Assembly: GCA_020345805.1 (NCBI GenBank)
Contig: CP070772.1
Location: 3,809,470-3,860,507, forward strand
Length of the DNA: 51,038 nt
Direction: 5' to 3'
DNA from: Phycisphaerales bacterium
GTDB taxonomy: Bacteria; Planctomycetota; Phycisphaerae; Phycisphaerales; SM1A02
Below, piece after piece: positions 13,504 to 32,943 of this stretch (positions are counted from its first letter, which is position 1; the number at the start of each line of letters is the position of its first letter). The notes under the pieces were generated by a model, which made no database searches, was not told the DNA's origin, and saw only the letters and a program-made list of their open reading frames with translations. The translations under genes were made by a program, and so were the position numbers.

Positions 13504-14538
13504 ATGACTCACAAGGTGCACTTGCTGTTCGACGAACGGATGATCGATCACGATCCGGGGCCGATGCATCCGGAGCGGCCGATGCGATTGCAGGCGATCG
13601 TCGAACGGCTGCGCGGACATCGGATCACGGGCACCCAATGGTCCAGACCGCATCCCGCCACTCGCGAGCAGATCGCCCGCATCCACGACGAGGCGTACAT
13701 CGACCACATCGACGCCCAGAGAGGCAAGTCGGCGCATCTGGATCCGGATACCGCGACTTCGCCCGATTCGGTCAATGCGGCGTATCTGGCGGCCGGGGCG
13801 GCCGTCGACGCGGTGACCAAGGTTATGAAATGCGCAGGCGACCGGGCCTTCGCCCTCGTGCGCCCGCCCGGGCATCATGCCGAGCGCGACCGCGCCATGG
13901 GCTTCTGCATCTTCAACAACACGGCGATCGCCGCCGCTCACGCGGTGCAGGAGCTGGGTTGCCGGCGCGTGCTGATCGTCGATTGGGACGTTCACCATCC
14001 CAACGGAACGCAGCAGGCGTTCTACGACCGTGATGATGTGTTCATGTTTTCCTCGCATCGCTACCCGTTCTATCCCGGCACCGGCGCGCTGGATGAGATC
14101 GGCACCGGCGCCGGTGAAGGTCTCACGGTGAACGTGCCCCTCGGCCCCGGACAGGGCGACGACGTGCACTGGGCGCTGCTGGAAGGTCTGCTGAGGCCGA
14201 TCGCCGAGCAGTTCCAGCCGGAGCTGGTGCTGGTCTCGGCCGGTTACGACTCCCACCGCGAGGATCTCCTGGGCGGGATGCGGGTAACGGACGACGGTTT
14301 CGCCGCCTTCAGCGGCTTGGTGTCGGACGTTGCCAACCGCTACGCCCAGGGACGTCTGGTGATGGTTCTGGAAGGCGGCTACGACCTGGCGGCCCTGGGC
14401 CGGGGCGTGTGTTCGGGCGTGGAGGTGATGGCGGGGGCAACGCCTCCCATCTGCGACGCCCCCACCGGCCACGGTGCGGAACTCGTCAAGGAGATCTTCG
14501 CCCACCACCGTCGCCACTGGCCGCGGGTGGGCAAGTAG
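13504..14538 (+). CDS. histone deacetylase family enzyme
   Basis: 344 residues, a full zinc-dependent deacetylase of the arginase fold as in acetoin-utilisation protein and class II HDAC relatives. Visible site residues are the charge-relay pair in RPPGHHAE (His124, His125), GFCIFNN, zinc ligands Asp162 and His164 in DWDVHHPNGTQ, Asp249 in SAGYDSH, and LEGGYD. In bacteria such enzymes act on acetylpolyamines, acetyl-lysine proteins or other small amides; the substrate cannot be told here. Part of the plus-strand run UVR-RmlD-HDAC-Der, with 22 bases before it and 52 after. Confidence 0.93.
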   Translation: MTHKVHLLFDERMIDHDPGPMHPERPMRLQAIVERLRGHRITGTQWSRPHPATREQIARIHDEAYIDHIDAQRGKSAHLDPDTATSPDSVNAAYLAAGAAVDAVTKVMKCAGDRAFALVRPPGHHAERDRAMGFCIFNNTAIAAAHAVQELGCRRVLIVDWDVHHPNGTQQAFYDRDDVFMFSSHRYPFYPGTGALDEIGTGAGEGLTVNVPLGPGQGDDVHWALLEGLLRPIAEQFQPELVLVSAGYDSHREDLLGGMRVTDDGFAAFSGLVSDVANRYAQGRLVMVLEGGYDLAALGRGVCSGVEVMAGATPPICDAPTGHGAELVKEIFAHHRRHWPRVGK

Positions 14539-14590
14539 GGCATTCCCCCGCCCCCTGCCGTCTCTGCCCTCGGCCTACAATCCGCACCAT

Positions 14591-16042
14591 ATGCCCCTGC
14601 CGCAGATCGCCATTGTGGGACGGCCCAACGTGGGCAAGTCCAGCCTGCTCAACCGCCTGGCCCGGCGGCAGGTGTCCATCGTGGACCCCGCCCCCGGCGT
14701 GACCCGCGACCGCGTCTCGGCGGTCATCGAGATCGACGCCCCCATCGAAACGCCCAAGGGCACGCCGCCCAAACTGGTGGAGATCACCGACACCGGCGGG
14801 TGGGGGGTCTATGTCGCCGACGGCAAGCGCTATGACGACGTCGGGGCCGACCTCGCCGGCCTGACCCACGATATCGAAACCCAGATCGCCCTCGCCATGG
14901 ATCGCTCCGACCTGATCCTGTTCGTCATGGACGGCCAGGCGGGGGTCACCTCCCTTGACGAGACCATCGCCAAGCTCCTGCGCGAGCGCAACGCCGCGGG
15001 CCGCGTCCTGCCCGTGGCCAACAAGATCGACAGCGAGGAGTGGGTCCCCTTCGGCCTGGAGGCCGCCGCGTTCGGATTCGGCGAGCCCCTGTGCGTCTCC
15101 GCCACCTCCGGCCGGGGCATGCAGAGACTCATGGACGCCATCTGGGAGCACACGCCCGGCGAGGAGTCGGAACCCGAATCCGATGCGGAGATGAAGCTCG
15201 CCATTGTTGGCAAGCGCAACAGTGGCAAGAGCACGCTCATCAACACCCTGGCCGGCGAGGAACGCGTCATCGTCTCGGAAATCGCCGGCACCACCCGCGA
15301 TTCGGTTGATGTGCGCTTCGAGGTCGAAGGAAAGTCGATGATCGCAATCGACACTGCCGGCGTGCGGAAGCGCAAGAGCTTCGCCGACGACATCGAGTAC
15401 TACGCCTATCACCGCATGCTCCAGTCCATTCGCCGGGCGGACGTGGTGATGCTGCTCATCGACGCCACCACGGAGGTCTCGCAGGTCGACAAGAAGCTCG
15501 CCCAGGAGCTGCAGAGGCAGTACAAGCCGACCATCATCGTGGTCAACAAGTGTGACCGGATCGACAAGGACCAGATCCAGCCCGAGGACTTCCTCGATTA
15601 CCTCACCGAGCAGTTGCGCGGCCTGGACTATGCCCCCATCGTCTTCATCAGCGCTCTGAAGCGCGAGGGGTTGTCGGAGCTGACCGCGATGGCCCACAAC
15701 CTCTTCCAGCAGGCCGGCCACCGGGAAGGAACGGGTCATCTCAACACCGTGGTGCAAGCGATTCTCAAGCAGCGCGGCCCGTCATCACGCCTCGGCACGC
15801 AGGCCAAGCTCCTGTTTGCCACGCAGGTTTCGACCCACCCCCCCACGATCGTTCTCGTGGTGAATCACCCGAAGTTATTCCACGGCCAGTACGAGCGCTA
15901 CCTGCTCAACCGCATGCGCGAGGAGCTGTCGTTCAGCGAAATCCCTATCCGCGTCCTCTTCAAGAAGCGCACCCGCCTGGAACTGGATGAGCTGAAGGAG
16001 CGCGGCAAGGAAAAATCCGGCGCGATTGAAGGCGACGAATAG
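14591..16042 (+). CDS. der: ribosome biogenesis GTPase Der (EngA)
   Basis: 483 residues with the tandem GTPase architecture unique to Der, which acts in 50S subunit maturation. Domain 1 has G1 GRPNVGKSS (residues 8-16), G3 DTGGW and G4 NKID. Domain 2 has G1 GKRNSGKST, G3 DTAGVRKR and G4 NKCD. The C-terminal KH-like domain covers about the last 110 residues (GPSSRLGTQAKLLFATQ... PIRVLFKKR). In the second G1 the usual Pro-Asn-Val is Arg-Asn-Ser, though the P-loop Gly-Lys-Ser/Thr is intact. The frame opens upstream at 14474, inside the HDAC gene; ATG 14591 begins the conserved MPLPQIAIVG. Confidence 0.97.
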   Translation: MPLPQIAIVGRPNVGKSSLLNRLARRQVSIVDPAPGVTRDRVSAVIEIDAPIETPKGTPPKLVEITDTGGWGVYVADGKRYDDVGADLAGLTHDIETQIALAMDRSDLILFVMDGQAGVTSLDETIAKLLRERNAAGRVLPVANKIDSEEWVPFGLEAAAFGFGEPLCVSATSGRGMQRLMDAIWEHTPGEESEPESDAEMKLAIVGKRNSGKSTLINTLAGEERVIVSEIAGTTRDSVDVRFEVEGKSMIAIDTAGVRKRKSFADDIEYYAYHRMLQSIRRADVVMLLIDATTEVSQVDKKLAQELQRQYKPTIIVVNKCDRIDKDQIQPEDFLDYLTEQLRGLDYAPIVFISALKREGLSELTAMAHNLFQQAGHREGTGHLNTVVQAILKQRGPSSRLGTQAKLLFATQVSTHPPTIVLVVNHPKLFHGQYERYLLNRMREELSFSEIPIRVLFKKRTRLELDELKERGKEKSGAIEGDE

Positions 16043-18145: not shown

Positions 18146-19510
18146 ATGTCGATCGTTCCCTTGCCGGTTTTTGAGACGGATGCCGACCCGCGTCATCGGA
18201 CCGAGCTGACCGCCGAAGAGCATTCCCGGACCCTGGAGCCTCCCACATCGATCGTGGTCCGCTTCGGCTACATGCGGCTCATCGGCGAATACGATTACGA
18301 GGGCGATCACCGCCCCGTGTGCGGAGCCCGGCTCGTGGCCCGCACCCACCGCGGGACCGAGCTGGTGCACATGGTCTCCACCGCCTGTCCCAACAGCGGC
18401 TGCCGCACCGCCGTCACCCGGGAGGAAATGCACGAGTACATCGAGAATTCCGGGGGGCGCGAATTCCCCTTTCAGACCGGGGGGAAGATCCTCCGCACCG
18501 CCACAATCGAGGATCTGAACAAGCAGCGGGCCATCGACAACGACAAGACCAGTTACATCATCGCATGCAAGCAGCTTATCGCCGAACTGGAAATGGACAT
18601 GAATCTGGTGGAGGTGGAGCCGATCCTCGGCGGCGAGCTTCTGACCTTCTACTACATGGCCGAGGAGCGGGTGGACTTCCGCGAACTGGTCAAGCAACTG
18701 GCCGGCCAGTTCAAGACCCGCATCGAGATGCGACAGGTCGGGGCGCGGGATGAAGCCCGGCTGGTGGCCGACTACGAGCGGTGCGGGCAGCACTGCTGCT
18801 GTCGCAGCTTCCTCAAGGTGCTCAGACCCGTTTCGATGAAGTCCGCCAAGATCCAGAAAGCCACGCTTGACCCGCTGAAGATCTCCGGCCGATGCGGACG
18901 GCTGATGTGCTGCCTGCGGTATGAGGACAAGACATACCGCGAACTGAAGGCCCGGCTGCCAAAGAGAAACTCACGCGTCGGCACCGCCGAAGGACCGGGC
19001 GTGGTGGTTGAAACCCGGACCATCGTGCAACTCGTGCTCGTGCGGCTGGAGCACGACAACCGCGAGATCGCCGTGCCGGTCGATGAACTTATGGATCCGG
19101 AAACCTGCCCCGGGCCCGGCGAGATCGAAGCGCCTCCGGCAATCCCTGATGAGGAGTTCGAGCCGTTCCACAGCCTGCTGGACCAGGAAGCCAAAGAACC
19201 CAGCCGACCCGGTAAGGACGAGACCGGCAAGGAGAAGGATCAGTCGCGGCGTCGGCGCCGGAGGAGACGCAAACGCACTCGGGCCAAACCGGACCTCGAA
19301 ACACCGGCCAAGACCGACTCCGAGCGACAGGAGGCGAAGCCGTCACCCCCACGCCCGGCGGAGGGATCCACCCCCGAGGCCAGGTCCGGGAAGTCCAAAC
19401 GAAGGCGCAGGCGGCGAAAGCGCAAGCACGGTTCTTCGGGCAATCCCGGCTCAACTTCCGGGGGCGGCTCGACCGATTCCTCCGGTGGAGGAGGCTCATC
19501 GGGCCGATAG
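18146..19510 (+). CDS. RicT/YaaT family PSP1-domain protein
   Basis: 454 residues. The core to about 310 is a PSP1 protein: SIVVRFGYMRLIGEY, then the PSP1 C-terminal region with YYMAEERVDFRELVKQL and FKTRIEMRQVGARDEA, and a cysteine-rich block ERCGQHCCCRSFLK plus GRCGRLMCCLRYE. Those cysteines match the RicT/YaaT family, which in Bacillus forms an Fe-S RicTAF complex that controls RNase Y mRNA processing. An unusual extra 80-residue cysteine pair region lies near CPNSGCRTAVT. The tail from about 350 is disordered: strongly basic (runs of Arg/Lys) then Gly/Ser repeats. No ricA or ricF is visible. A basic tail would suit RNA binding, but that is inference. Confidence 0.85.
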   Translation: MSIVPLPVFETDADPRHRTELTAEEHSRTLEPPTSIVVRFGYMRLIGEYDYEGDHRPVCGARLVARTHRGTELVHMVSTACPNSGCRTAVTREEMHEYIENSGGREFPFQTGGKILRTATIEDLNKQRAIDNDKTSYIIACKQLIAELEMDMNLVEVEPILGGELLTFYYMAEERVDFRELVKQLAGQFKTRIEMRQVGARDEARLVADYERCGQHCCCRSFLKVLRPVSMKSAKIQKATLDPLKISGRCGRLMCCLRYEDKTYRELKARLPKRNSRVGTAEGPGVVVETRTIVQLVLVRLEHDNREIAVPVDELMDPETCPGPGEIEAPPAIPDEEFEPFHSLLDQEAKEPSRPGKDETGKEKDQSRRRRRRRRKRTRAKPDLETPAKTDSERQEAKPSPPRPAEGSTPEARSGKSKRRRRRRKRKHGSSGNPGSTSGGGSTDSSGGGGSSGR

Positions 19511-19620: not shown

Positions 19621-21255
19621 ATGCCCACTGAAATCCAATCATCCCACAAAGCGGCCGACTCCTCCGTGGTGGAGACGATCCAGTCCCTGGTCGTGGCCTT
19701 CGTTCTGGCCATGACCTTCCGCTCTTTCGTGACCGAGGGCTTCGTGATCCCCACCGGTTCGATGGCTCCCACCCTGCTGGGCGAGCACGTTCTTTGGCAT
19801 TCGGATCAGACCGGGGCCACCTTTCCAATCGGGTGGGACGGAACTCGCAACCGTCAACGCGTTTACGGGGATGAGATCAAAGATCCCATGCTGGGGGATG
19901 ACTATAAGCTGCAGGATGTGCGGCGGCGGGAACTCCATGCACGAATGGGTGATCGGGTCCTCGTACTCAAGAGCCTCTACCTGGTCAGCGAGCCGGACCG
20001 GTTTGACGTGGTCGTGTTCAAGAACCCCACCGACCCCACGGGAGACGCGGCAAATTACATCAAGCGACTCATCGGTCTGCCGAGCGAGAAGATCTGGCTC
20101 GCCGACGGGGACGTCTTTGCCGGCGATGCTTCAGAACCGGGCATGGAGGGTTATTCCGTTCAGCGCAAGCCCGAACATGTGCAGAGAGCGGTCTGGCAGC
20201 CCGTTTACGACAGCGACTATTTCCCGGTTGCGCCGGCGGAGTTGGCCCCCCCGTTTGACGGCCCGCAATGGCGGGGCGAGCAGTGGGAAACGGACGCCCG
20301 ACGCAGCTATGTCTGCCGGACCGCCGAGCCGACGAGCCTGACCTGGGACAACAACCTAAGGCGGCTCAGCGACTGGAACTCCTACAACATGCTCATGCCG
20401 CCGCCCAACTACGATCCGGACGACGTCAGCGATGTCCGCATCAGCGCCGCAGTGGTGGCGGACGACCCGGCAGCGCTCGGCATGACGCTTCGCCTCAAGG
20501 CCCGGAGGCACGTGTTCGAATTCATCATCACCAGCGGTCAGGCGCTTGTGCGCATGCGACCGGACTTTGACGATCAGCTCCCCTGGGAAACCAGTGAGGC
20601 AAAGAAGATCAGCCTGCCCGGCGGGGGCAAGGTCTTCAACGTCGAGTTCTGGCACGTCGACCAGTCGCTGGCAATCTTCATCGACGGGAAGCGCGTGGCG
20701 GGGCACGAGTACGAATGGACGCCCGCCCAGCGACTGATGTACGCCGCGGATGAGCTTTTCGCCGACGAGAACGACATCGAGGCCATCGGCGAACTCACCG
20801 ACAACCGGAAGCTCCCGCCGGCCATCGAGTGGAGCTTCCAGGGATCGCCGGTCACCCTGCACCGCGTGCGCCTGGATCGCGACCTGTACTACAAGGTCGA
20901 TGAGTACCGTGGCGGCCGGAGGCGTAACTCCACTCAACCGGGGTTCGAGCACCTCACAAGCCCCATCGCCCACCGCCTCAATCCCGCCTACGGCACCCAT
21001 CCTCTCAGACCGGCGGTGCTCAACTCCGACCAGTTCTTCATGCTCGGGGACAACAGCGCCGCCTCGTCCGACGGCCGGCTCTGGGGCAACCCCCACTCGC
21101 TCGTCGCCACCCAGATCGACCCGGCCCCGTTTGTGGTCAATCGTAAACTGCTCCTGGGCAAGGCCTGGGTGGTCTATTTCCCCGCCCCCCATCCGGTCAA
21201 GGAGGGCGGCCCGGGCGTGATCCTCGACTTCGGCCGTTTGCGCTTCATTCGCTGA
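19621..21255 (+). CDS. lepB: enlarged signal peptidase I with internal beta-sandwich-like insert
   Basis: 544 residues against 180-330 for most type I signal peptidases. One N-terminal membrane segment (about 17-38) is followed by the catalytic Ser47 in IPTGSMAPTLLG, the general-base Lys148 in NYIKRLIGLPSE, and the late box LGDNSAASSDGR at 475-486. Between Lys148 and that box lie over 300 residues instead of the usual 50-120. Part of the insert (about 265-430) has the alternating pattern of a ConA/LamG-like sandwich, with VEFWHVDQSLAIFIDGKRV as its clearest piece. It should cleave Sec signal peptides on the outer face of the inner membrane. The insert may bind substrate or envelope material. 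A compact paralogue lies at 32245. Confidence 0.92.
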   Translation: MPTEIQSSHKAADSSVVETIQSLVVAFVLAMTFRSFVTEGFVIPTGSMAPTLLGEHVLWHSDQTGATFPIGWDGTRNRQRVYGDEIKDPMLGDDYKLQDVRRRELHARMGDRVLVLKSLYLVSEPDRFDVVVFKNPTDPTGDAANYIKRLIGLPSEKIWLADGDVFAGDASEPGMEGYSVQRKPEHVQRAVWQPVYDSDYFPVAPAELAPPFDGPQWRGEQWETDARRSYVCRTAEPTSLTWDNNLRRLSDWNSYNMLMPPPNYDPDDVSDVRISAAVVADDPAALGMTLRLKARRHVFEFIITSGQALVRMRPDFDDQLPWETSEAKKISLPGGGKVFNVEFWHVDQSLAIFIDGKRVAGHEYEWTPAQRLMYAADELFADENDIEAIGELTDNRKLPPAIEWSFQGSPVTLHRVRLDRDLYYKVDEYRGGRRRNSTQPGFEHLTSPIAHRLNPAYGTHPLRPAVLNSDQFFMLGDNSAASSDGRLWGNPHSLVATQIDPAPFVVNRKLLLGKAWVVYFPAPHPVKEGGPGVILDFGRLRFIR

Positions 21256-24838: not shown

Positions 24839-26869
24839 TCAGATCGTCGCTTCGGTGACGCGTAGGACTTCCTCTACGGTGGTGACGCCGTCGTTGACCT
24901 TCTGAAAGCCGTCCTGGCGCAGAGTGACCATGCCGCGCTCCACGCACTGGCGGCGGAACTCCGTCACGTTGGGATTGCGGGCGATGGTGTCGCGCAGGTG
25001 GTCATCGAGCACGAGCATCTCGTAGAGGCCGCAGCGGCCGTGGTAGCCGGTCTCCCGGCACTTGTTGCATCCCCCGCCCTGCATCAGATTGTCGGCTTGT
25101 ACGCCGTGTGCGTTGAGGAAGTCGATGATCTCATCGCCGACCTCGGCCTTCTTGGCACACTGGCCGCATATCCGTCGCACCAGCCGCTGGGCGAGCACGG
25201 CGTTGACCGCCGCCCCGACTAGGAACGGCTCGATGCCGATATTGATCAATCGCGTGATCGAGGAGGGTGCGTCGTTGGTGTGCAGGGTGGAGAGGACGAG
25301 ATGACCGGTCATCGCCGCCTGGATGGCGATGGTGGCCGTTTCCATGTCGCGGATCTCGCCCACCATGATCACATCCGGATCCTGACGCATCAGGGCCCGC
25401 AGGGCCGCGGAGAAGCTCATGCCGATCCTCTCATGCGTCTGGATCTGGGTAATTGCGGCGAGGTTGTATTCGACCGGGTCCTCAACCGTGGAGACATTGA
25501 GCTTGCGCAGATCAAGCTGCTGGAGCGAGGAGTAGAGGGTGGTGGTCTTGCCGCTGCCGGTGGGGCCGGTGACGAGGATGATGCCGTGCGGCTGGGCGAT
25601 CTGGTTCTTCCAGATCATCAGGGTGTCCTCGGCGAAGCCCAACTCGTCGAGGCTCACGTGTATTGACCGAGTATCCAGAATACGCATCACGGTCTTCTCA
25701 CCCTTGGGCGTGGGGACCGTCGAGACGCGCAGGTCGAGCTTCCGGCCGAGGACGGTGACTCGGATGCGGCCGTCCTGCGGCAGGCGGCGCTCGGCGATGT
25801 CGAGATTCGCCATGATCTTGATGCGGGAGGTAAGCGCCGCGTGCATCTTCCTGGGCGGATTCATCATCTCAAAGAGCACGCCGTCGATGCGGAAGCGCAC
25901 GGTGAGGGTCTTGTCTTCCGGCTCGATGTGGATGTCGCTTGCCCCCTCCTTCAGCGCGGTCTGGATGATGTGATTGACGTAGCGCACGACAGGCGAGGAT
26001 TCCGCCTCGCCGACATCCGCCTCATCCACCTCTTCGGCGACCACCGCTACATCGTCTTCCTCGACGTCGGCCAGGATCTCATCGACGTTGTATTGATCTG
26101 CCTCCGCTTCGCCGAGCAGCTCCAGCACGCCGCGGATATCATGGGCGGTCACGAGCACGTGCTTGATGGAAGGCACCTTGAGCTGGCGCTTCACATCATC
26201 AAGCAGGAACACGTCGTCGGGATTGACGGTCCCCACCACCATCCGCGATCCTTCCCTCCGCAGCGGGAGGACCAGATTGGCCTTGCAGAAATCTTGGGTC
26301 AGTCGATAGAGCGCCGTCTCATCATAAGAATCCTGAGCTTCATAATCGATACGCTCGAAGGGCAAGCGGGCGACTTCCGCCACGGCCTGCTGAACTTTCA
26401 CTTCGTCCACCCCCATCTCGATTAGCGTTGCGGCCAGCTTCTTGCCGGGAGTCTGCTTTATGACCCGCCGGGCGGTGGCGAGCTGTTCGGCATTGATCAC
26501 GCCGAGATCGAGAAGCAGTCGACTGAGCTCATCTCCATCAGCCGGAGCCTCTTCATCACCGGAGGCTCGCTCTTCGCTCGGGCCGTGAATCGGGCTCAGC
26601 TCATCCACCGCTTCGAGGGGGGCGGGCTCGACCTCGGCGGCGGCGATATCGGCAAGGAATTCCCGGTCGGACCCGGAGGCGGCCAGATCAGACGGGTCGG
26701 GAGTCCCGGCCGGATTCTGCGGCACGAACATTGGACTCTCGTCAGGGACCGCCGGCTCGGGAACCGAAGAACTCCCTTCGCCAGGCACTGAGGGCGACGG
26801 CTCCCTCGGCGCGTTCGGATCGGGCTCCCCCAAACCCTCCAGCACATCGTCAAGGTCGAACTTGCCCAC
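24839..26869 (-). CDS. pilB: type IV pilus / type II secretion assembly ATPase (PilB/GspE family)
   Basis: 676 residues. Residues 1-115 are acidic, proline-rich linker after a short MGKFDLDDVLEGL start. A GspE N-terminal (MshEN-like) domain follows at about 115-255, then the ATPase: ASDIHIEPED (310-319), Walker A GPTGSGKT (435-442), Asp box, Walker B DPDVIMVGEIRD (497-508) and the His box TLHTND. The zinc-type tetracysteine is CGQC (568-571) with CNKC (601-604), typical of extension ATPases rather than PilT. It hydrolyses ATP at the inner-membrane base to drive pilin or pseudopilin addition. Last gene of the minus-strand run pilM-N-O-P-like-B, 40 bases after the PilP-like gene. Confidence 0.93.
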   Translation of the reverse strand: MGKFDLDDVLEGLGEPDPNAPREPSPSVPGEGSSSVPEPAVPDESPMFVPQNPAGTPDPSDLAASGSDREFLADIAAAEVEPAPLEAVDELSPIHGPSEERASGDEEAPADGDELSRLLLDLGVINAEQLATARRVIKQTPGKKLAATLIEMGVDEVKVQQAVAEVARLPFERIDYEAQDSYDETALYRLTQDFCKANLVLPLRREGSRMVVGTVNPDDVFLLDDVKRQLKVPSIKHVLVTAHDIRGVLELLGEAEADQYNVDEILADVEEDDVAVVAEEVDEADVGEAESSPVVRYVNHIIQTALKEGASDIHIEPEDKTLTVRFRIDGVLFEMMNPPRKMHAALTSRIKIMANLDIAERRLPQDGRIRVTVLGRKLDLRVSTVPTPKGEKTVMRILDTRSIHVSLDELGFAEDTLMIWKNQIAQPHGIILVTGPTGSGKTTTLYSSLQQLDLRKLNVSTVEDPVEYNLAAITQIQTHERIGMSFSAALRALMRQDPDVIMVGEIRDMETATIAIQAAMTGHLVLSTLHTNDAPSSITRLINIGIEPFLVGAAVNAVLAQRLVRRICGQCAKKAEVGDEIIDFLNAHGVQADNLMQGGGCNKCRETGYHGRCGLYEMLVLDDHLRDTIARNPNVTEFRRQCVERGMVTLRQDGFQKVNDGVTTVEEVLRVTEATI

Positions 26870-26909
26870 GTGCTTCTCCCCAGGTCTTATGGGACTCGGA
26901 AGTCGGCGG

Positions 26910-27671
26910 TCATGACCCTTCGCGCATTCGAAGGGTGTGCTCCACGATCAGGTCGTACTCCGGCGCGGTGGCGGCCACCGTGACCGTATCGGCGGTCATG
27001 GCGATAACTCTGAACTCGACCCCGGCGGAACCGGCGGGTACCACATCACCGATATGAACGATCCGGTTGTTTATGTTCGCCAGCGGACTGGACCCCATCA
27101 GGATGGATTTGACGAAGAGACGGGAGGCGGCCTGCTCGAAGCTCGCCCGGCGGGCCTCTCGCTGCTGCATCCAGGCGCGTTGTCGTTCGCTGTCCAGATC
27201 GTTCCCGCCATCATCGACCTCGGGGAGGGGAATCACCTCCGATTGAAACACGATGAACGGGTTCTTGATCACGTTGGCGAGCGGAACCTGATGTTCGGTG
27301 TAGGTTTCGTTCAGAACTTCCAGGATTGAATCGTCTGCGGAAGTCCCGTCCTCACGTTGGGCGGTCTTCCCGCCGTTGCCACCGCCGAAGAAATCTTCGA
27401 TGATCTTCTCGAATTCCGCGTTGCCCGTGAGGGCGGCGGTGGTCGTGGCGAGGAACCGCATGGAGAAAAGGCCGGCGACGGCGCACACTACGACAATACC
27501 GAGCACGAGGGAGCCGGCGCGGAGCTTCCGGTAGTTGCCGGTGGAGGCCAGCACGTCCACGCCAACCTCCTCGCCCAGTTCACCGACGCCCAGAGGCATC
27601 GTCGCACCCTCGGGGGTTCCGACCTCGTCCAGGATCGGCTCGCCCGATCCGCCTGTTTCGTTGACGTTCAC
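26910..27671 (-). CDS. PilP/GspC-like inner-membrane secretion protein
   Basis: About 253 residues. One membrane segment (LVLGIVVVCAVAGLFSMRFLA, around residue 57-77 of this form) is followed by a glycine-rich linker, then a C-terminal small beta domain. The landmarks KNPF, LFVKSILMGSSPLANINNRIVHIGDVV, and VEFRVIAMTADTVTVAA match the shape of the homology region of PilP and GspC: R-D-P-F, an I-x-x-G strand, a G-D-x-V turn and the I-x-x-D-x-V strand. Gene order (after pilO, where pilP normally sits) supports this. I prefer GTG 27671, with GGAG eight bases upstream, over TTG 27689. Not a confident family match; it lacks the PilP lipobox. Confidence 0.6.
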   Translation of the reverse strand: MNVNETGGSGEPILDEVGTPEGATMPLGVGELGEEVGVDVLASTGNYRKLRAGSLVLGIVVVCAVAGLFSMRFLATTTAALTGNAEFEKIIEDFFGGGNGGKTAQREDGTSADDSILEVLNETYTEHQVPLANVIKNPFIVFQSEVIPLPEVDDGGNDLDSERQRAWMQQREARRASFEQAASRLFVKSILMGSSPLANINNRIVHIGDVVPAGSAGVEFRVIAMTADTVTVAATAPEYDLIVEHTLRMREGS

Positions 27672-27694
27672 GATGCAGACTCCATCCAAATGGC

Positions 27695-28276
27695 TCAGTC
27701 AGAGACCGAGGAGGCAGAAGCGAAGTAAATGCTGAGAGTGAACTGGGCCTTCATCGAACCCGGCGGAAGCTCACTACCCGGGCCCCGGCCGGCACCCACA
27801 CCCATGGAGGCCTGCTCCATACTCAGCCGATGAATGCGCGTAATGCGAGGCAGCTTCTCCAGGGCCAGCAGAAACTCATAGAAGTCGTCGAAGCGCCCCT
27901 CCATCACCATCTCGATGGGAAGCTCCATGAAGGCGGCGGCGGGAACCGGCGGCTGAGGCTTGAACGACGGCACATTCAGGTGATTCGACCGGGCCAGTTG
28001 GGTGAACTGCTCGAGCATCCCCGCCACATCATCCTCGGACGGGAGCTTCTCTTCGATCAGGGCGATGGCCTGTTTGCCGTTCTCGATCTCCAGGCCGATG
28101 TCCTCGATCTGCGCCGTCATCTCTTCCAGCTGATCAAGCCGTTCCTGCTTGATGGCGATCTCAAGCTTGGCCTGGGTGATCTCCGAATTGCGGGGCTTGA
28201 AGACATAAACGAAGGACGCAACCGGCACAGCCAGCAACACGATCAGGAAGATGATCTCGCGAATTCCGAATCGCAT
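27695..28276 (-). CDS. pilO: PilO-like pilus/secretion alignment protein
   Basis: 193 residues. A membrane helix at 7-25 (IIFLIVLLAVPVASFVYVF), then a heptad-rich coiled coil at about 32-75, then a ferredoxin-like domain with PSEDDVAGMLEQFTQLARSNHLNV and the signature ELPIEMVMEGRFDDFYEFLLALEKLPRITRI. That last block is diagnostic of PilO, the periplasmic partner of PilN. Together they link the cytoplasmic PilM ring to the outer parts of the machine. Two bases separate the pilN stop and this gene's ATG, so translation is likely coupled. Confidence 0.88.
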   Translation of the reverse strand: MRFGIREIIFLIVLLAVPVASFVYVFKPRNSEITQAKLEIAIKQERLDQLEEMTAQIEDIGLEIENGKQAIALIEEKLPSEDDVAGMLEQFTQLARSNHLNVPSFKPQPPVPAAAFMELPIEMVMEGRFDDFYEFLLALEKLPRITRIHRLSMEQASMGVGAGRGPGSELPPGSMKAQFTLSIYFASASSVSD

Positions 28277-28278
28277 AT

Positions 28279-29097
28279 CTACTCTCCTTCCCCGGGATTG
28301 CCGGGATCGGCGAAGGTGATGCCGGACCCCGCGGCGCCGCGGGTCCCGGGAGCGCTGAGGATCAGTTGATCGCTCATCGGATTCCCAGAGCCGCGGGACA
28401 GGATGAGCGGTTCGATGCTCCTCACGTCCGCAGCCGGATCCAGTGACATAGCAATGGAGAACTGTCGCATCAGCCGCCCGTCGATTTCCCTGTCCTCCGA
28501 GTAGTCCAGTCGGACGTTGCGGACCAGTTCATAGGTGTTGAGCACCGCCATGTACCGCGAGACCTCAAGGTCGCTCGGGGCAACCCCGACCAGAGTGAGG
28601 TCCACGCGATAGCGGGGCGGCTCGATCTTCTTGACCTGCTCGGCCGCTTCCTCCTTGGTCGGAGCGCGGTTGGCATCCTTCAGGTTGCCGATCTGACCGG
28701 CCTTCACCACCGGCGAGGTCAGGGTCTTGATCTTCTCCGATTTCAGCTCGAACTCCAGGAGGCTGAGACGCGGAGGCATCCGATTGATGAGTTCGGCCAG
28801 GAGAATCGACCGCGGCACGCGCTCGACGAGCGCGGCGGAAAGCTCGGCGCGGTTCAGCATCGCCTTCTTCTGTTCCTGAAGATCGATGAGATCCTCGATC
28901 TGCTCGGCCGCGGTCTGGTAGCGCATGTTGATCGTCTGCTGTTGCGCCTTGACCTGCGACCATTGCTGATTCGTGACGAGGAAGGCGCCGAAAACGCCGA
29001 TCATCACCACTCCAAAAAGCAGGAGACTGATGATGTTCGTGCGCCTTTCCGCCTTCTGCGCCAGATAGTCTTCGGGCAGGAAGCTCGTGTTGTCCAT
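28279..29097 (-). CDS. pilN: PilN-like pilus/secretion assembly protein
   Basis: 272 residues. A cytoplasmic head MDNTSFLPEDYLAQKAERR corresponds to the PilN INLLP-type motif that binds PilM. A membrane helix (about 22-43) and coiled coil with Q/A-rich heptads (about 50-85) follow. The periplasmic domain has ILLAELINRMPPRLSLLEFEL and YRVDLTLVGVAPSDLEVSRYMAVLNTYELVRNVRLDYSE, typical of PilN fold strands. The last 45 residues are an extra Gly/Pro-rich tail. Sits between pilM (12 bases upstream) and pilO. Confidence 0.88.
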   Translation of the reverse strand: MDNTSFLPEDYLAQKAERRTNIISLLLFGVVMIGVFGAFLVTNQQWSQVKAQQQTINMRYQTAAEQIEDLIDLQEQKKAMLNRAELSAALVERVPRSILLAELINRMPPRLSLLEFELKSEKIKTLTSPVVKAGQIGNLKDANRAPTKEEAAEQVKKIEPPRYRVDLTLVGVAPSDLEVSRYMAVLNTYELVRNVRLDYSEDREIDGRLMRQFSIAMSLDPAADVRSIEPLILSRGSGNPMSDQLILSAPGTRGAAGSGITFADPGNPGEGE

Positions 29098-29109
29098 ACC
29101 GACGGCTCC

Positions 29110-30384
29110 TTAGGAATTGGTTGGCGTCATGCAGAGGCCACACGCCACCGCCCAGCCCGGCTGAGGCGTGCCAAGGGTCAGACCCGGTGTTCGTATTTGT
29201 TTAGGCTGGACCAGTCTGGCCAGCGGGTCGCCCATCTGGGCGGGGAATCGAAGCTCTTTCACAATGTGCTGGCACATCCACATCTGCCTGGCCTCCCCAC
29301 CCAGAAAGATCGCCCGGTCGATTCGCCGATCCGGGAACAGGCCCCGGTGATAGCGCAGGCACATGGACAGTTCGTCTGTGATGGTGTCCAGCAGCTCGGA
29401 GAGATCCACGTTTGGAGTCGACGCCAGCGCGTCCCGCGGCTCCAGCGGGCCGCTCAGCTCCGGGGGAACCACACCGACCCGGCGATCCTCCTGCACCTCG
29501 ACCGTCGGCCCCTCGGCCTCCGGCTCCGCTTGCACCGCCGGCCGATTGTCTGCGGCCGCTTCGCCCGTCGCGGGGTCGTGGACTGCCGTTGACTCGCCCG
29601 ATCCCGGGTGGTCGGGACGCGATGCGGTCGCCTCCTCGATCGACTGCATCGAAAGCCGATGAGCACGTGCGCTGTTCATATCGCAGTGGAACGTCGCTGC
29701 AATGTGCTGATCGAAATGCCTGCCACCAACCTGGATGTACCGGGCGAAGACGATGTCCCGGCCGTGACTGATGGCCACCCGCGTTCCGCCGCTGCCCAGA
29801 TCGACATAGACCGTCGTGATCTCCCGGTCCGACTCGCGCCGTGACAGATGGTCAAACGCCCGCACCATGGAAACGATCTCAGTGTGCGCGCCGACCACTT
29901 CCAGCCTGCACTTCCGCAACAGCTCGATGTAGCGCATCACCGTATCGCGGGCAATGGCGAAACAGATCATCTCCGTCTTCGCCTGCCCGTCCCGGTGCAC
30001 GCTGCCCACATCGACCGAACGGACGACCACGCTGTCCGGAGCGCAGCCCATCTGGGTCTGGAGCTGGGCCTTGACCAGGTCGTCGGTGCTCACGCCGTCG
30101 ATCGGTGACAGCTGCATGTGCTGGATGAACGTCTGGCCGCTGGGAATGGCGCAGACGGCCCGCCGACCCTTAAACCGGCCCGACTGCAGAAGCACGGGCA
30201 GTTGATGGCCATAGTACGTGAAAAGCTGTTCCGGGTTCTTCCGGGCGTGCTCCGGCACATCCATGCATGCCGCTCCCAGCAGCGACGGGCGGTCGCCCAT
30301 ACCGATCTGCAGGACCTTCACCGAAGAAGTGCCGAAATCGACCGCAATCGGCGAATGCTGAGGCGTAAACATTCCAAACCGCAT
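29110..30384 (-). CDS. pilM: PilM-like actin-fold pilus assembly protein
   Basis: About 424 residues. An actin/FtsA-fold ATPase: SPIAVDFGTSSVKVLQIG is the phosphate-1 loop, VCAIPSGQTFIQHMQLSP and TVYVDLGSGGTRVAISHGRDIVFAR follow, and IFLGGEARQMWMCQHIV is the adenosine region. PilM binds the N-terminal tail of PilN and forms a cytoplasmic ring. An inserted Pro/Glu-rich disordered stretch of about 65 residues lies near 255-320, larger than in standard PilM. Adjacent ATG codons at 30387 and 30384 are both possible; GGAGG is six bases from the second. First gene of the pilus operon. Confidence 0.9.
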   Translation of the reverse strand: MRFGMFTPQHSPIAVDFGTSSVKVLQIGMGDRPSLLGAACMDVPEHARKNPEQLFTYYGHQLPVLLQSGRFKGRRAVCAIPSGQTFIQHMQLSPIDGVSTDDLVKAQLQTQMGCAPDSVVVRSVDVGSVHRDGQAKTEMICFAIARDTVMRYIELLRKCRLEVVGAHTEIVSMVRAFDHLSRRESDREITTVYVDLGSGGTRVAISHGRDIVFARYIQVGGRHFDQHIAATFHCDMNSARAHRLSMQSIEEATASRPDHPGSGESTAVHDPATGEAAADNRPAVQAEPEAEGPTVEVQEDRRVGVVPPELSGPLEPRDALASTPNVDLSELLDTITDELSMCLRYHRGLFPDRRIDRAIFLGGEARQMWMCQHIVKELRFPAQMGDPLARLVQPKQIRTPGLTLGTPQPGWAVACGLCMTPTNS

Positions 30385-30387
30385 CAT

Positions 30388-30789
30388 CGCCCTCCAACGT
30401 CCGTGCACCTGCACTGACGCAGCGCAACTGCCCTGTCCATCGACACCCGGGCCACGGGGGTTGAGCCGGTAAGTTCGGCAACCTCAAGCAAGTAGGACGA
30501 CCCTCCCAATGGTGCGGCCTGGCTCCAACATCCCGTGCTATGACCACTGCATCGAACATGCGATATGCCCCGGTCCATCAGAAGTACATCGTGGCGACAG
30601 AGGCCGATCCGGGGCTTCGGATCGCCCGCACCGATCGCGCAGCTACCGCAGGCGGCATAACCGGACCCGCACTTACAGACCCGACATCCGCACTAGGTCC
30701 ACCGCCCGCCCCACGCCGGCTCGACGCGCGGCAAACGCCGCCGGGAGGGGCCGGCGGCGATGATCACGATCCCTCACTGTCTCGCGAGG
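30388..30789. other. gap between pilM and hisS
   Basis: About 400 bases. The part nearest hisS holds its probable terminator (30731-30759) and another hairpin, CGATCCG/CGGATCG at 30605-30624. The part nearest pilM should carry the pilus operon promoter, which I could not place. A 64-codon minus frame ends at 30384 overlapping the pilM start in an ATGA arrangement, but it has no clear start signal or family and I do not annotate it. Confidence 0.5.
30731..30759 (-). terminator. probable hisS terminator
   Basis: Thirty bases beyond the hisS stop, a perfect 9-bp stem (CGCCGCCGG with CCGGCGGCG, six-base loop) is followed on the minus strand by TTTGCC. The T-run is short, so termination may be partial. 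Confidence 0.55.
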
Positions 30790-32244: not shown

Positions 32245-32943
32245 ATGACCGATCAGCCGCAGCCGCTTCTCCGCAGGCTCTGGCAGCAGTGGTTGAAGCC
32301 GATAATCGTGGTCGTTGTCATCATCGCCCCCCTCCGGTCGTCGGTCGCGGACTGGAACGACGTGCCCACCCAGTCCATGGAGCCCACGATCCTGGTGGGC
32401 GACCGGATCCTCGTCAACAAGCTCGCCTACGGCCTGCGGGTGCCCTTCACACACTTCTACGCCCTTTCCTGGTCCGGGCCGCAGCGCGGCGACATCGTCG
32501 TCTTCCACGCCCCCGGCGACGGAAAACGGATGGCCAAACGGGTTATCGCCATCCCCGGCGATCGCATCGCCATGCGGAACAACCGCCTCTTCATCAACGG
32601 CGCGGCCATGCCGGTAGAGCGCCGGACCGCGGCAGAGCTGGAAGCGAACGATCTAACCGACCCCGCTCCCCACCTCTTTGGCCTGGAAACGCTGGATACC
32701 GTCGAGCACGCGGTGATGGCCCAGCCGCACCGGCCCGCGCCGCGCTCCTTCGATGAAATCACCGTCCCCGCCGGTCAGTATTTCATGATGGGCGACAACC
32801 GCGACAACAGCGGCGATTCGCGGTCCTTCGGCTTCGTGCCCCGCCACAGGATCCTCGGCCGGGCCTACGGAACCGCCTACAGCTTCGATCACGACGACTG
32901 GTACCGACCGCGGTGGAGCCGCTTCCTCCGCGACCTGGACTGA
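32245..32943 (+). CDS. lepB: signal peptidase I (compact paralogue)
   Basis: 232 residues with one N-terminal membrane segment (about 16-30). Catalytic Ser44 in VPTQSMEPTILVGDRILVNK, Lys98 in MAKRVIAIPGDRI, and box E MGDNRDNSGDSR at 181-192 are all present. It removes Sec signal peptides outside the inner membrane. GGGAG six bases before ATG supports the start. This is the normal-sized relative of the 544-residue enzyme at 19621; the two probably divide substrates. Confidence 0.95.
   Translation: MTDQPQPLLRRLWQQWLKPIIVVVVIIAPLRSSVADWNDVPTQSMEPTILVGDRILVNKLAYGLRVPFTHFYALSWSGPQRGDIVVFHAPGDGKRMAKRVIAIPGDRIAMRNNRLFINGAAMPVERRTAAELEANDLTDPAPHLFGLETLDTVEHAVMAQPHRPAPRSFDEITVPAGQYFMMGDNRDNSGDSRSFGFVPRHRILGRAYGTAYSFDHDDWYRPRWSRFLRDLD

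What the first reader, a model, noticed from the sequence alone, without database searches (positions are those of the whole stretch)
19621..21255. Giant signal peptidase I with a ConA/LamG-like insert next to a compact paralogue
Seen: Ser47, Lys148 and the GDNSAASSDGR box are intact but more than 300 residues separate the Lys and the box, versus 50-120 in ordinary enzymes. Part of the insert has the alternating strand pattern of a jelly-roll, with VEFWHVDQSLAIFIDGKRV as its clearest part. The normal-sized paralogue at 32245 has no such insert. Inference: the insert may recognise a special substrate class, such as the dockerin-tailed or pilin-like exported proteins also encoded here.
Basis: partly seen in the sequence, partly recalled or inferred. 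Interest (0 to 1): 0.72.

Follow-up and report, generated by a model that had tools for sequence, protein, structure and literature searches.

The report
Planctomycete signal peptidase with lectin-like cap
The enzyme that cuts signal peptides off exported proteins carries, almost throughout the bacterial phylum Planctomycetota, a large built-in domain folded like a sugar-binding lectin; since it is usually the only such enzyme in the genome, it is most likely their everyday signal peptidase rather than a specialist.

Summary
The 544-aa ORF at 19621-21255 is a type I signal peptidase (family S26) with Ser47, Lys148 and GDN476 intact and 328 residues between the Lys and the GDN box. The insert is a ConA-like beta-sandwich: modelled alone it has pLDDT 90.9 and pTM 0.89, and its best solved-structure matches are L-type lectins (ERGIC-53, Z 13.1).

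The specialist interpretation is not supported. The giant form occurs in 189/198 genomes of the class and 147/149 of the phylum. In the order, about 49 of 61 genomes show no other S26 gene. The compact paralogue is patchy (about 20 of 198). So the giant is the housekeeping signal peptidase. The insert occupies the position of the ordinary 'cap' (domain II), which elsewhere varies in size and has no conserved motifs. Here it carries Asp271/347/421, conserved in 195, 198 and 197 of 198 sequences.

I also found a four-Cys zinc-ribbon-like knuckle between the Ser and Lys boxes in most relatives, lost in this window's own family.

Most likely role: a built-in periplasmic scaffold that stabilises or positions the catalytic core. 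Sugar binding is undemonstrated and the signature lectin motifs searched for are absent. A new variant of a known kind; I found no paper on it in an open-access library.

The parts
19621..21255 (+). CDS of the giant type I signal peptidase, 544 aa
   Evidence: Pfam PF10502 E 9e-25, TIGR02227; class- and phylum-wide homologues of the same architecture
19666..19728 (+). single transmembrane helix, residues 16-36
   Evidence: AlphaFold2 model helix H16-36; hydrophobic sequence
19747..19767 (+). IPTGSMA box with catalytic Ser47 (codon 19759-19761)
   Evidence: invariant in the class alignment; S47 in 191/198 homologues, the rest mostly truncated rows
19789..19947 (+). residues 57-109: position of the CxxC...CxxC zinc-ribbon-like knuckle of other Phycisphaerae; here the Cys are replaced (SDQTG at the first knuckle)
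   Evidence: CxxC..CxxC in 38/38 class members outside the order and 6/34 within it, none in own family; weak Pfam zinc-ribbon hits in several members
19948..20076 (+). boxes C and D, with catalytic Lys148 (codon 20062-20064)
   Evidence: invariant in the class alignment
20140..21006 (+). insertion, residues 174-462, modelled alone
   Evidence: AlphaFold2 pLDDT 90.9, pTM 0.89
20188..20892 (+). ConA-like beta-sandwich body, residues 190-424, in the place of the ordinary cap (domain II)
   Evidence: VIA-align to ERGIC-53 Z 13.1, 163 residues, 3.2 A; Foldseek top hits of ConA-like folds; 7/71 members hit Pfam galectin, best E 0.001, and 2/71 Laminin_G_3
20431..20433 (+). Asp271, near-invariant insert residue
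   Evidence: D in 195/198, E in 3
20659..20661 (+). Asp347, invariant insert residue (WHVDQSLAIFIDGKRV)
   Evidence: 198/198
20878..20883 (+). Arg420-Asp421, end of the last strand of the sandwich
   Evidence: R 181/198, D 197/198
21046..21078 (+). box E, GDNSAASSDGR, residues 476-486
   Evidence: GDN invariant in the class alignment; D484 198/198
32245..32943 (+). compact ordinary type I signal peptidase, 232 aa, no insert; patchy in the class
   Evidence: PF10502 E 1.5e-46 in one stretch; strong full-length match in about 20/198 class genomes; 43% to plasmid-borne LepB
18146..19510 (+). RicT (PSP1/YaaT family), conserved upstream neighbour
   Evidence: NF041131 E 1.4e-63; immediately upstream, same strand, in 51/71 related loci with enough flank

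Best explanation
This is the housekeeping type I signal peptidase of the organism. One N-terminal membrane helix (16-36) holds a normal Ser47-Lys148 catalytic core on the outer face of the cytoplasmic membrane, where it cuts signal peptides of Sec and Tat exports. Its cap (domain II), a small element inserted between boxes D and E in ordinary enzymes, is in Planctomycetota an autonomous ConA-like beta-sandwich of about 235 residues. Shown here: the core, the (predicted) fold of the insert, its near-universal presence, the frequent absence of any other S26 enzyme, and three near-invariant aspartates. Inferred: the cap works in every cleavage as a rigid periplasmic scaffold that stabilises the core and positions it at the membrane or translocon, in the way the luminal domain of SPCS3 stabilises SEC11 in the eukaryotic complex; its conserved polar residues (Lys183, Asp271, Asp347, Arg420-Asp421) hold the fold or the interface with the core rather than select a substrate class.
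For: Family and motifs. Core superposes on E. coli LepB (Z 14.6, 156 residues, 2.6 A, 36% identity of aligned residues). Insert fold; sequence-level support. Universality: 189/198 class genomes (151/154 of the good ones), 147/149 phylum genomes. Usually the sole S26 gene: about 49 of 61 order genomes; no archaeal-type signal peptidase over its cut-off in 21 family genomes. Selection: in the five closest pairs insert dN/dS is 0.07-0.34 against 0.02-0.15 in the core. Invariants. Domain II of S26 enzymes varies in size and has no conserved motifs (PMC4049620); SPCS3 stabilises SEC11 (PMC11579918). Kuenenia is reported with a single signal peptidase I (PMC2881027).
Against: No experiment. The window's genome also carries a compact enzyme that could share the housekeeping load. 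The S26 listing was cut at E about 5e-5, so very divergent extra genes could be missed. Near-invariant acidic residues in a lectin fold could equally mark a ligand or metal site.
Confidence: 0.6

Rival explanations
1. The cap is a working lectin or carbohydrate-binding module: it binds a cell-envelope glycan, holding or switching the enzyme near the wall or at glycosylated structures.
For: Closest folds are carbohydrate-binding domains (ERGIC-53, VIP36, CBM66, galectins); weak galectin and Laminin_G_3 Pfam hits; three near-invariant aspartates.
Against: Galectin HxNPR and WGxExR and legume VEFDT motifs found in none of 210 sequences; residues 298-340, where a galectin site would fall, show no class-wide invariants. 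A shared fold shows no function.
Confidence: 0.17
2. The cap is a docking surface for a planctomycete-specific partner, such as an envelope-assembly factor or a translocon subunit, rather than an internal scaffold.
For: Autonomous fold with conserved polar residues; phylum-wide presence; ConA-like domains can mediate protein contacts (ERGIC-53 with MCFD2 among the top hits).
Against: No partner gene is evident; the only conserved neighbour found, RicT, is a cytoplasmic RNA-processing factor by family.
Confidence: 0.15
3. The insert is a substrate selector: the giant enzyme handles a special class of exports (dockerin-tailed, pilin-like) and the compact enzyme does the general work.
For: Two S26 enzymes in this genome differing by the insert; the insert evolves faster than the core.
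Against: Most genomes have only the giant; no dockerin hit in the window ORFs scanned; type IV prepilins use another peptidase.
Confidence: 0.08

Closest known systems
E. coli signal peptidase I (LepB), MEROPS S26A
   Same: Catalytic core, Ser-Lys dyad, boxes B-E; core superposes at Z 14.6; insertion at the same place as the LepB cap (domain II)
   Different: Cap is a ConA-like sandwich of about 235 residues; Lys-GDN spacing 328 against about 127; one membrane helix modelled where LepB has two; conserved residues in the cap
Bacteroidota long signal peptidase I (Phocaeicola plasmid copy, L235)
   Same: Long S26 enzyme (474 aa) with an enlarged Lys-GDN interval (176)
   Different: Insert shows no detectable profile similarity to the planctomycete one (hhalign probability 0.3%)
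L-type lectin domains (ERGIC-53, VIP36, Emp46/47)
   Same: ConA-like beta-sandwich, Z up to 13.1 over 163 residues
   Different: 7% identity; embedded in a protease; sugar and Ca2+ site not shown
Galectin / Laminin_G_3 / CBM66 families
   Same: Same fold class; a few members give weak Pfam hits; CBM66 among the top Foldseek hits
   Different: Galectin signature motifs absent; the window protein itself has no hit to these families
Eukaryotic signal peptidase complex, SPCS3 with SEC11
   Same: A luminal domain adjoining an S26 catalytic core and stabilising it (PMC11579918)
   Different: Separate subunit in eukaryotes; homology to this insert was not tested and is not claimed

Membership tests
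Type I signal peptidase (S26, bacterial) | Match above curated cut-off of family models | tested here: met
   PF10502 88 bits (cut-off 22.9); TIGR02227 80.3 bits (cut-off 47)
Type I signal peptidase (S26, bacterial) | Catalytic Ser and Lys and GDN box in order | tested here: met
   Ser47, Lys148, GDN476
Type I signal peptidase (S26, bacterial) | N-terminal membrane helix just before the Ser box | tested here: met
   Helix 16-36 in the model
Type I signal peptidase (S26, bacterial) | Fold of the catalytic core | tested here: met
   LepB Z 14.6, 2.6 A over 156 residues; predicted model
Type I signal peptidase (S26, bacterial) | Cleavage of signal peptides | not testable with these tools
   needs an assay
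ConA-like lectin/glucanase superfamily (fold) | Two-sheet beta-sandwich matching solved members over most of the domain | tested here: met
   Z 11-13 to many members, about 145-177 residues; predicted model only
Galectin (Gal-bind_lectin) | Pfam match of the window protein | tested here: not met
   window insert has no hit up to E 0.5; 7 of 71 relatives hit weakly, best E 0.001
Galectin (Gal-bind_lectin) | HxNPR and WGxExR sugar motifs | tested here: not met
   0 of 210 sequences
L-type lectin (ERGIC-53/legume) | Ca2+ and sugar-binding loop residues at equivalent positions | not testable with these tools
   model coordinates and residue-level superposition not available; only the VEFDT string was searched and is absent
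GH16 glucanase (same fold) | ExDxxE catalytic motif | tested here: not met
   1 of 210 sequences by regex

The most novel reading that the evidence does not exclude
The main signal peptidase of a whole phylum is a lectin-gated or ligand-gated protease: the near-invariant Lys183/Asp271/Asp347/Arg420-Asp421 set in the ConA-like cap binds an envelope glycan, lipid or metal and couples signal-peptide removal to envelope assembly, with a zinc knuckle as a second, lineage-variable regulator.
Probability: 0.12. Interest if true: 0.8.

Novelty: new variant of a known kind. Interest (0 to 1): 0.55.

Why it matters
Signal peptidase I is a near-universal bacterial enzyme and a drug target, and its non-catalytic cap has been regarded as variable and without conserved motifs. 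Here the cap is a specific lectin-type fold kept across a phylum with an unusual cell envelope, with residues about as invariant as the active site. That gives a concrete, testable question about what the cap of signal peptidase does, and a well-defined character for planctomycete export biology.

Tried and rejected
Frameshift or gene-fusion artefact: rejected, the architecture recurs in 198 intact homologues. Mobile or phage origin: one short 36-residue viral-contig match, a phage match over 13% of the query, no plasmid match. Alternative signal peptidase doing the general work: TIGR02228 not over its cut-off in 21 family genomes. Homology with the Bacteroidota long insert: none detected. dN/dS on distant pairs was discarded because dS is saturated. 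SPCS3 did not appear among the listed fold matches, which does not exclude it. Literature: ten searches of an open-access library gave no paper describing this insert; subscription papers are not covered. The Chlamydia enzyme is reported as strongly diverged (PMC1403754); its insert was not examined.

Full report
WHAT WAS CHECKED. The ORF at 19621-21255 encodes 544 aa and its frame opens only three codons before the ATG. Pfam assigns it to Peptidase_S26 (E 9e-25), but the match is broken into three stretches because of the insertion; NCBIfam TIGR02227 (bacterial signal peptidase I) is met. Ser47, Lys148 and the GDN box at 476 are intact and 328 residues separate Lys from GDN. Read from the alignment the same distance is about 127 in E. 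coli LepB; in the compact paralogue at 32245 it is 85.

THE INSERT FOLDS AS A ConA-LIKE SANDWICH. An AlphaFold2 model of the full protein, on an alignment of the window protein with 70 relatives, has mean pLDDT 90.9 and pTM 0.90. The catalytic core superposes on E. coli LepB (Z 14.6, 2.6 A, 156 residues), and residues 190-424 match L-type lectin domains. The insert modelled alone (residues 174-462) keeps pLDDT 90.9 and pTM 0.89. Its best solved matches are ERGIC-53 (Z 13.1, 163 residues, 3.2 A, 7% identity), then VIP36, Emp46/47, legume lectins and CBM66; Foldseek lists the same fold class. Weak sequence evidence agrees: 7 of 71 relatives hit the galectin Pfam family (best E 0.001) and 2 hit Laminin_G_3. 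The galectin, legume-lectin and GH16 signature strings searched for are absent or nearly so, so membership of the fold is supported and lectin function is not.

IT IS NOT A SPECIALIST. A search of 198 genomes of the class finds the giant in 189, and in 151 of 154 good-quality ones. A profile search finds it in 147 of 149 genomes drawn from the phylum. The weaker hits examined are mostly also giants, matched on both sides of a diverged insert. By contrast the compact enzyme has a strong full-length match in only about 20 of 198 class genomes, and in the window's own family in 2 of 11. A Pfam S26 search of 61 order genomes finds the family in all; about 12 show an extra non-giant S26 gene and about 49 show only the giant (my count from the table, which is cut at E about 5e-5). 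No archaeal-type signal peptidase passes its cut-off in 21 family genomes. A few genomes show no S26 gene at all (G016, G030, G058, G114, G164, G195); assembly gaps are likely, but three of them are rated 95-96% complete. Kuenenia, an anammox planctomycete, is reported with a single signal peptidase I (PMC2881027), which agrees, although its length was not checked here.

WHERE THE INSERT SITS. In S26 enzymes a non-catalytic cap (domain II) lies between boxes D and E; it varies in size and has no conserved motifs (PMC4049620). The planctomycete insert lies in that interval. It differs in having conserved residues. In 198 distinct sequences selected for intact Lys and GDN, Asp347 is invariant, Asp421 is present in 197, Asp271 in 195 (Glu in the other three), and Lys183 and Tyr255 in 192 each. 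Average conservation of the insert is nonetheless lower than that of the core (0.32-0.38 against 0.56-0.85). In the five closest pairs dN/dS is 0.07-0.34 in the insert and 0.02-0.15 in the core: purifying selection, weaker than on the core. More distant pairs are saturated and were ignored.

A SECOND FEATURE. Between the Ser box and box C, 38 of 38 class members outside the window's order carry CxxC...CxxC, a zinc-ribbon-like knuckle; within the order only 6 of 34 do, all in two families, and none in the window's own family. Several members hit zinc-ribbon Pfam models weakly. Many members from other parts of the phylum also have it, while others have neither the Cys nor the loop. Zinc binding is inferred from the pattern only.

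CONTEXT. RicT lies immediately upstream on the same strand in 51 of 71 related loci with enough flank. The window also carries type IV pilus assembly genes; their prepilins are not substrates of signal peptidase I (established knowledge). The compact paralogue is an ordinary LepB, at best 43% identical to plasmid-borne proteobacterial LepB in the plasmid collection.

MECHANISM. Shown: an intact catalytic core, a confidently predicted cap, near-universality, and conserved cap residues. Inferred: the cap acts in every cleavage as a scaffold for the core, as the luminal domain of SPCS3 does for SEC11 (PMC11579918).

LIMITS. Other PVC phyla were not searched, so restriction to Planctomycetota is not claimed; a Bacteroidota long form has an unrelated insert. 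The literature search covered only an open-access library.

Noticed in passing
L048, L062, L031 and other Phycisphaerae homologues; window residues 57-109 (19789-19947): Four-Cys CxxC..CxxC zinc-ribbon-like knuckle between the Ser box and box C of the signal peptidase, lost in the window's own family, where other residues stand in place of the Cys.
   Followed up: partly
G096:C17, G106:C5 (L067), G110:C139 (L068), G248:C2 (L197), G272:C206 (L196), G270:C1 (L164, L198): Tandem or neighbouring pairs of giant signal peptidases, one often diverged, suggesting repeated duplication in several lineages.
   Followed up: no
18146-19510 and 51 of 71 related loci: ricT (PSP1/YaaT family) directly upstream of the signal peptidase gene, apparently a conserved gene pair.
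   Followed up: partly
G016, G030, G164 (and less complete G058, G114, G195): Planctomycetota genomes, three rated 95-96% complete, with no S26 signal peptidase found at all; assembly gap or real absence not resolved.
   Followed up: no
L138 (JADFQE010000007.1): A MAG titled Chloroflexi carries a typical Phycisphaerales-type giant signal peptidase over its full length; the MAG is probably mislabelled or misbinned.
   Followed up: no
G238:C11:170962-172401: Giant signal peptidase reading frame with one internal TAA; pseudogene, assembly error or recoding not examined.
   Followed up: no
L235:376-2699 (Phocaeicola plasmid record OY726034.1): Two adjacent long Bacteroidota S26-like genes; in the second the GDN box reads SNN, suggesting an altered or inactive partner.
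   Followed up: no
24839-30414 (-): Type IV pilus assembly cluster (PilB-like T2SSE, PilO, PilN, PilM).
   Followed up: no
13504-14538 (+): Histone-deacetylase-family protein overlapping the start of a Der/EngA-type GTPase gene (14474-16042).
   Followed up: no
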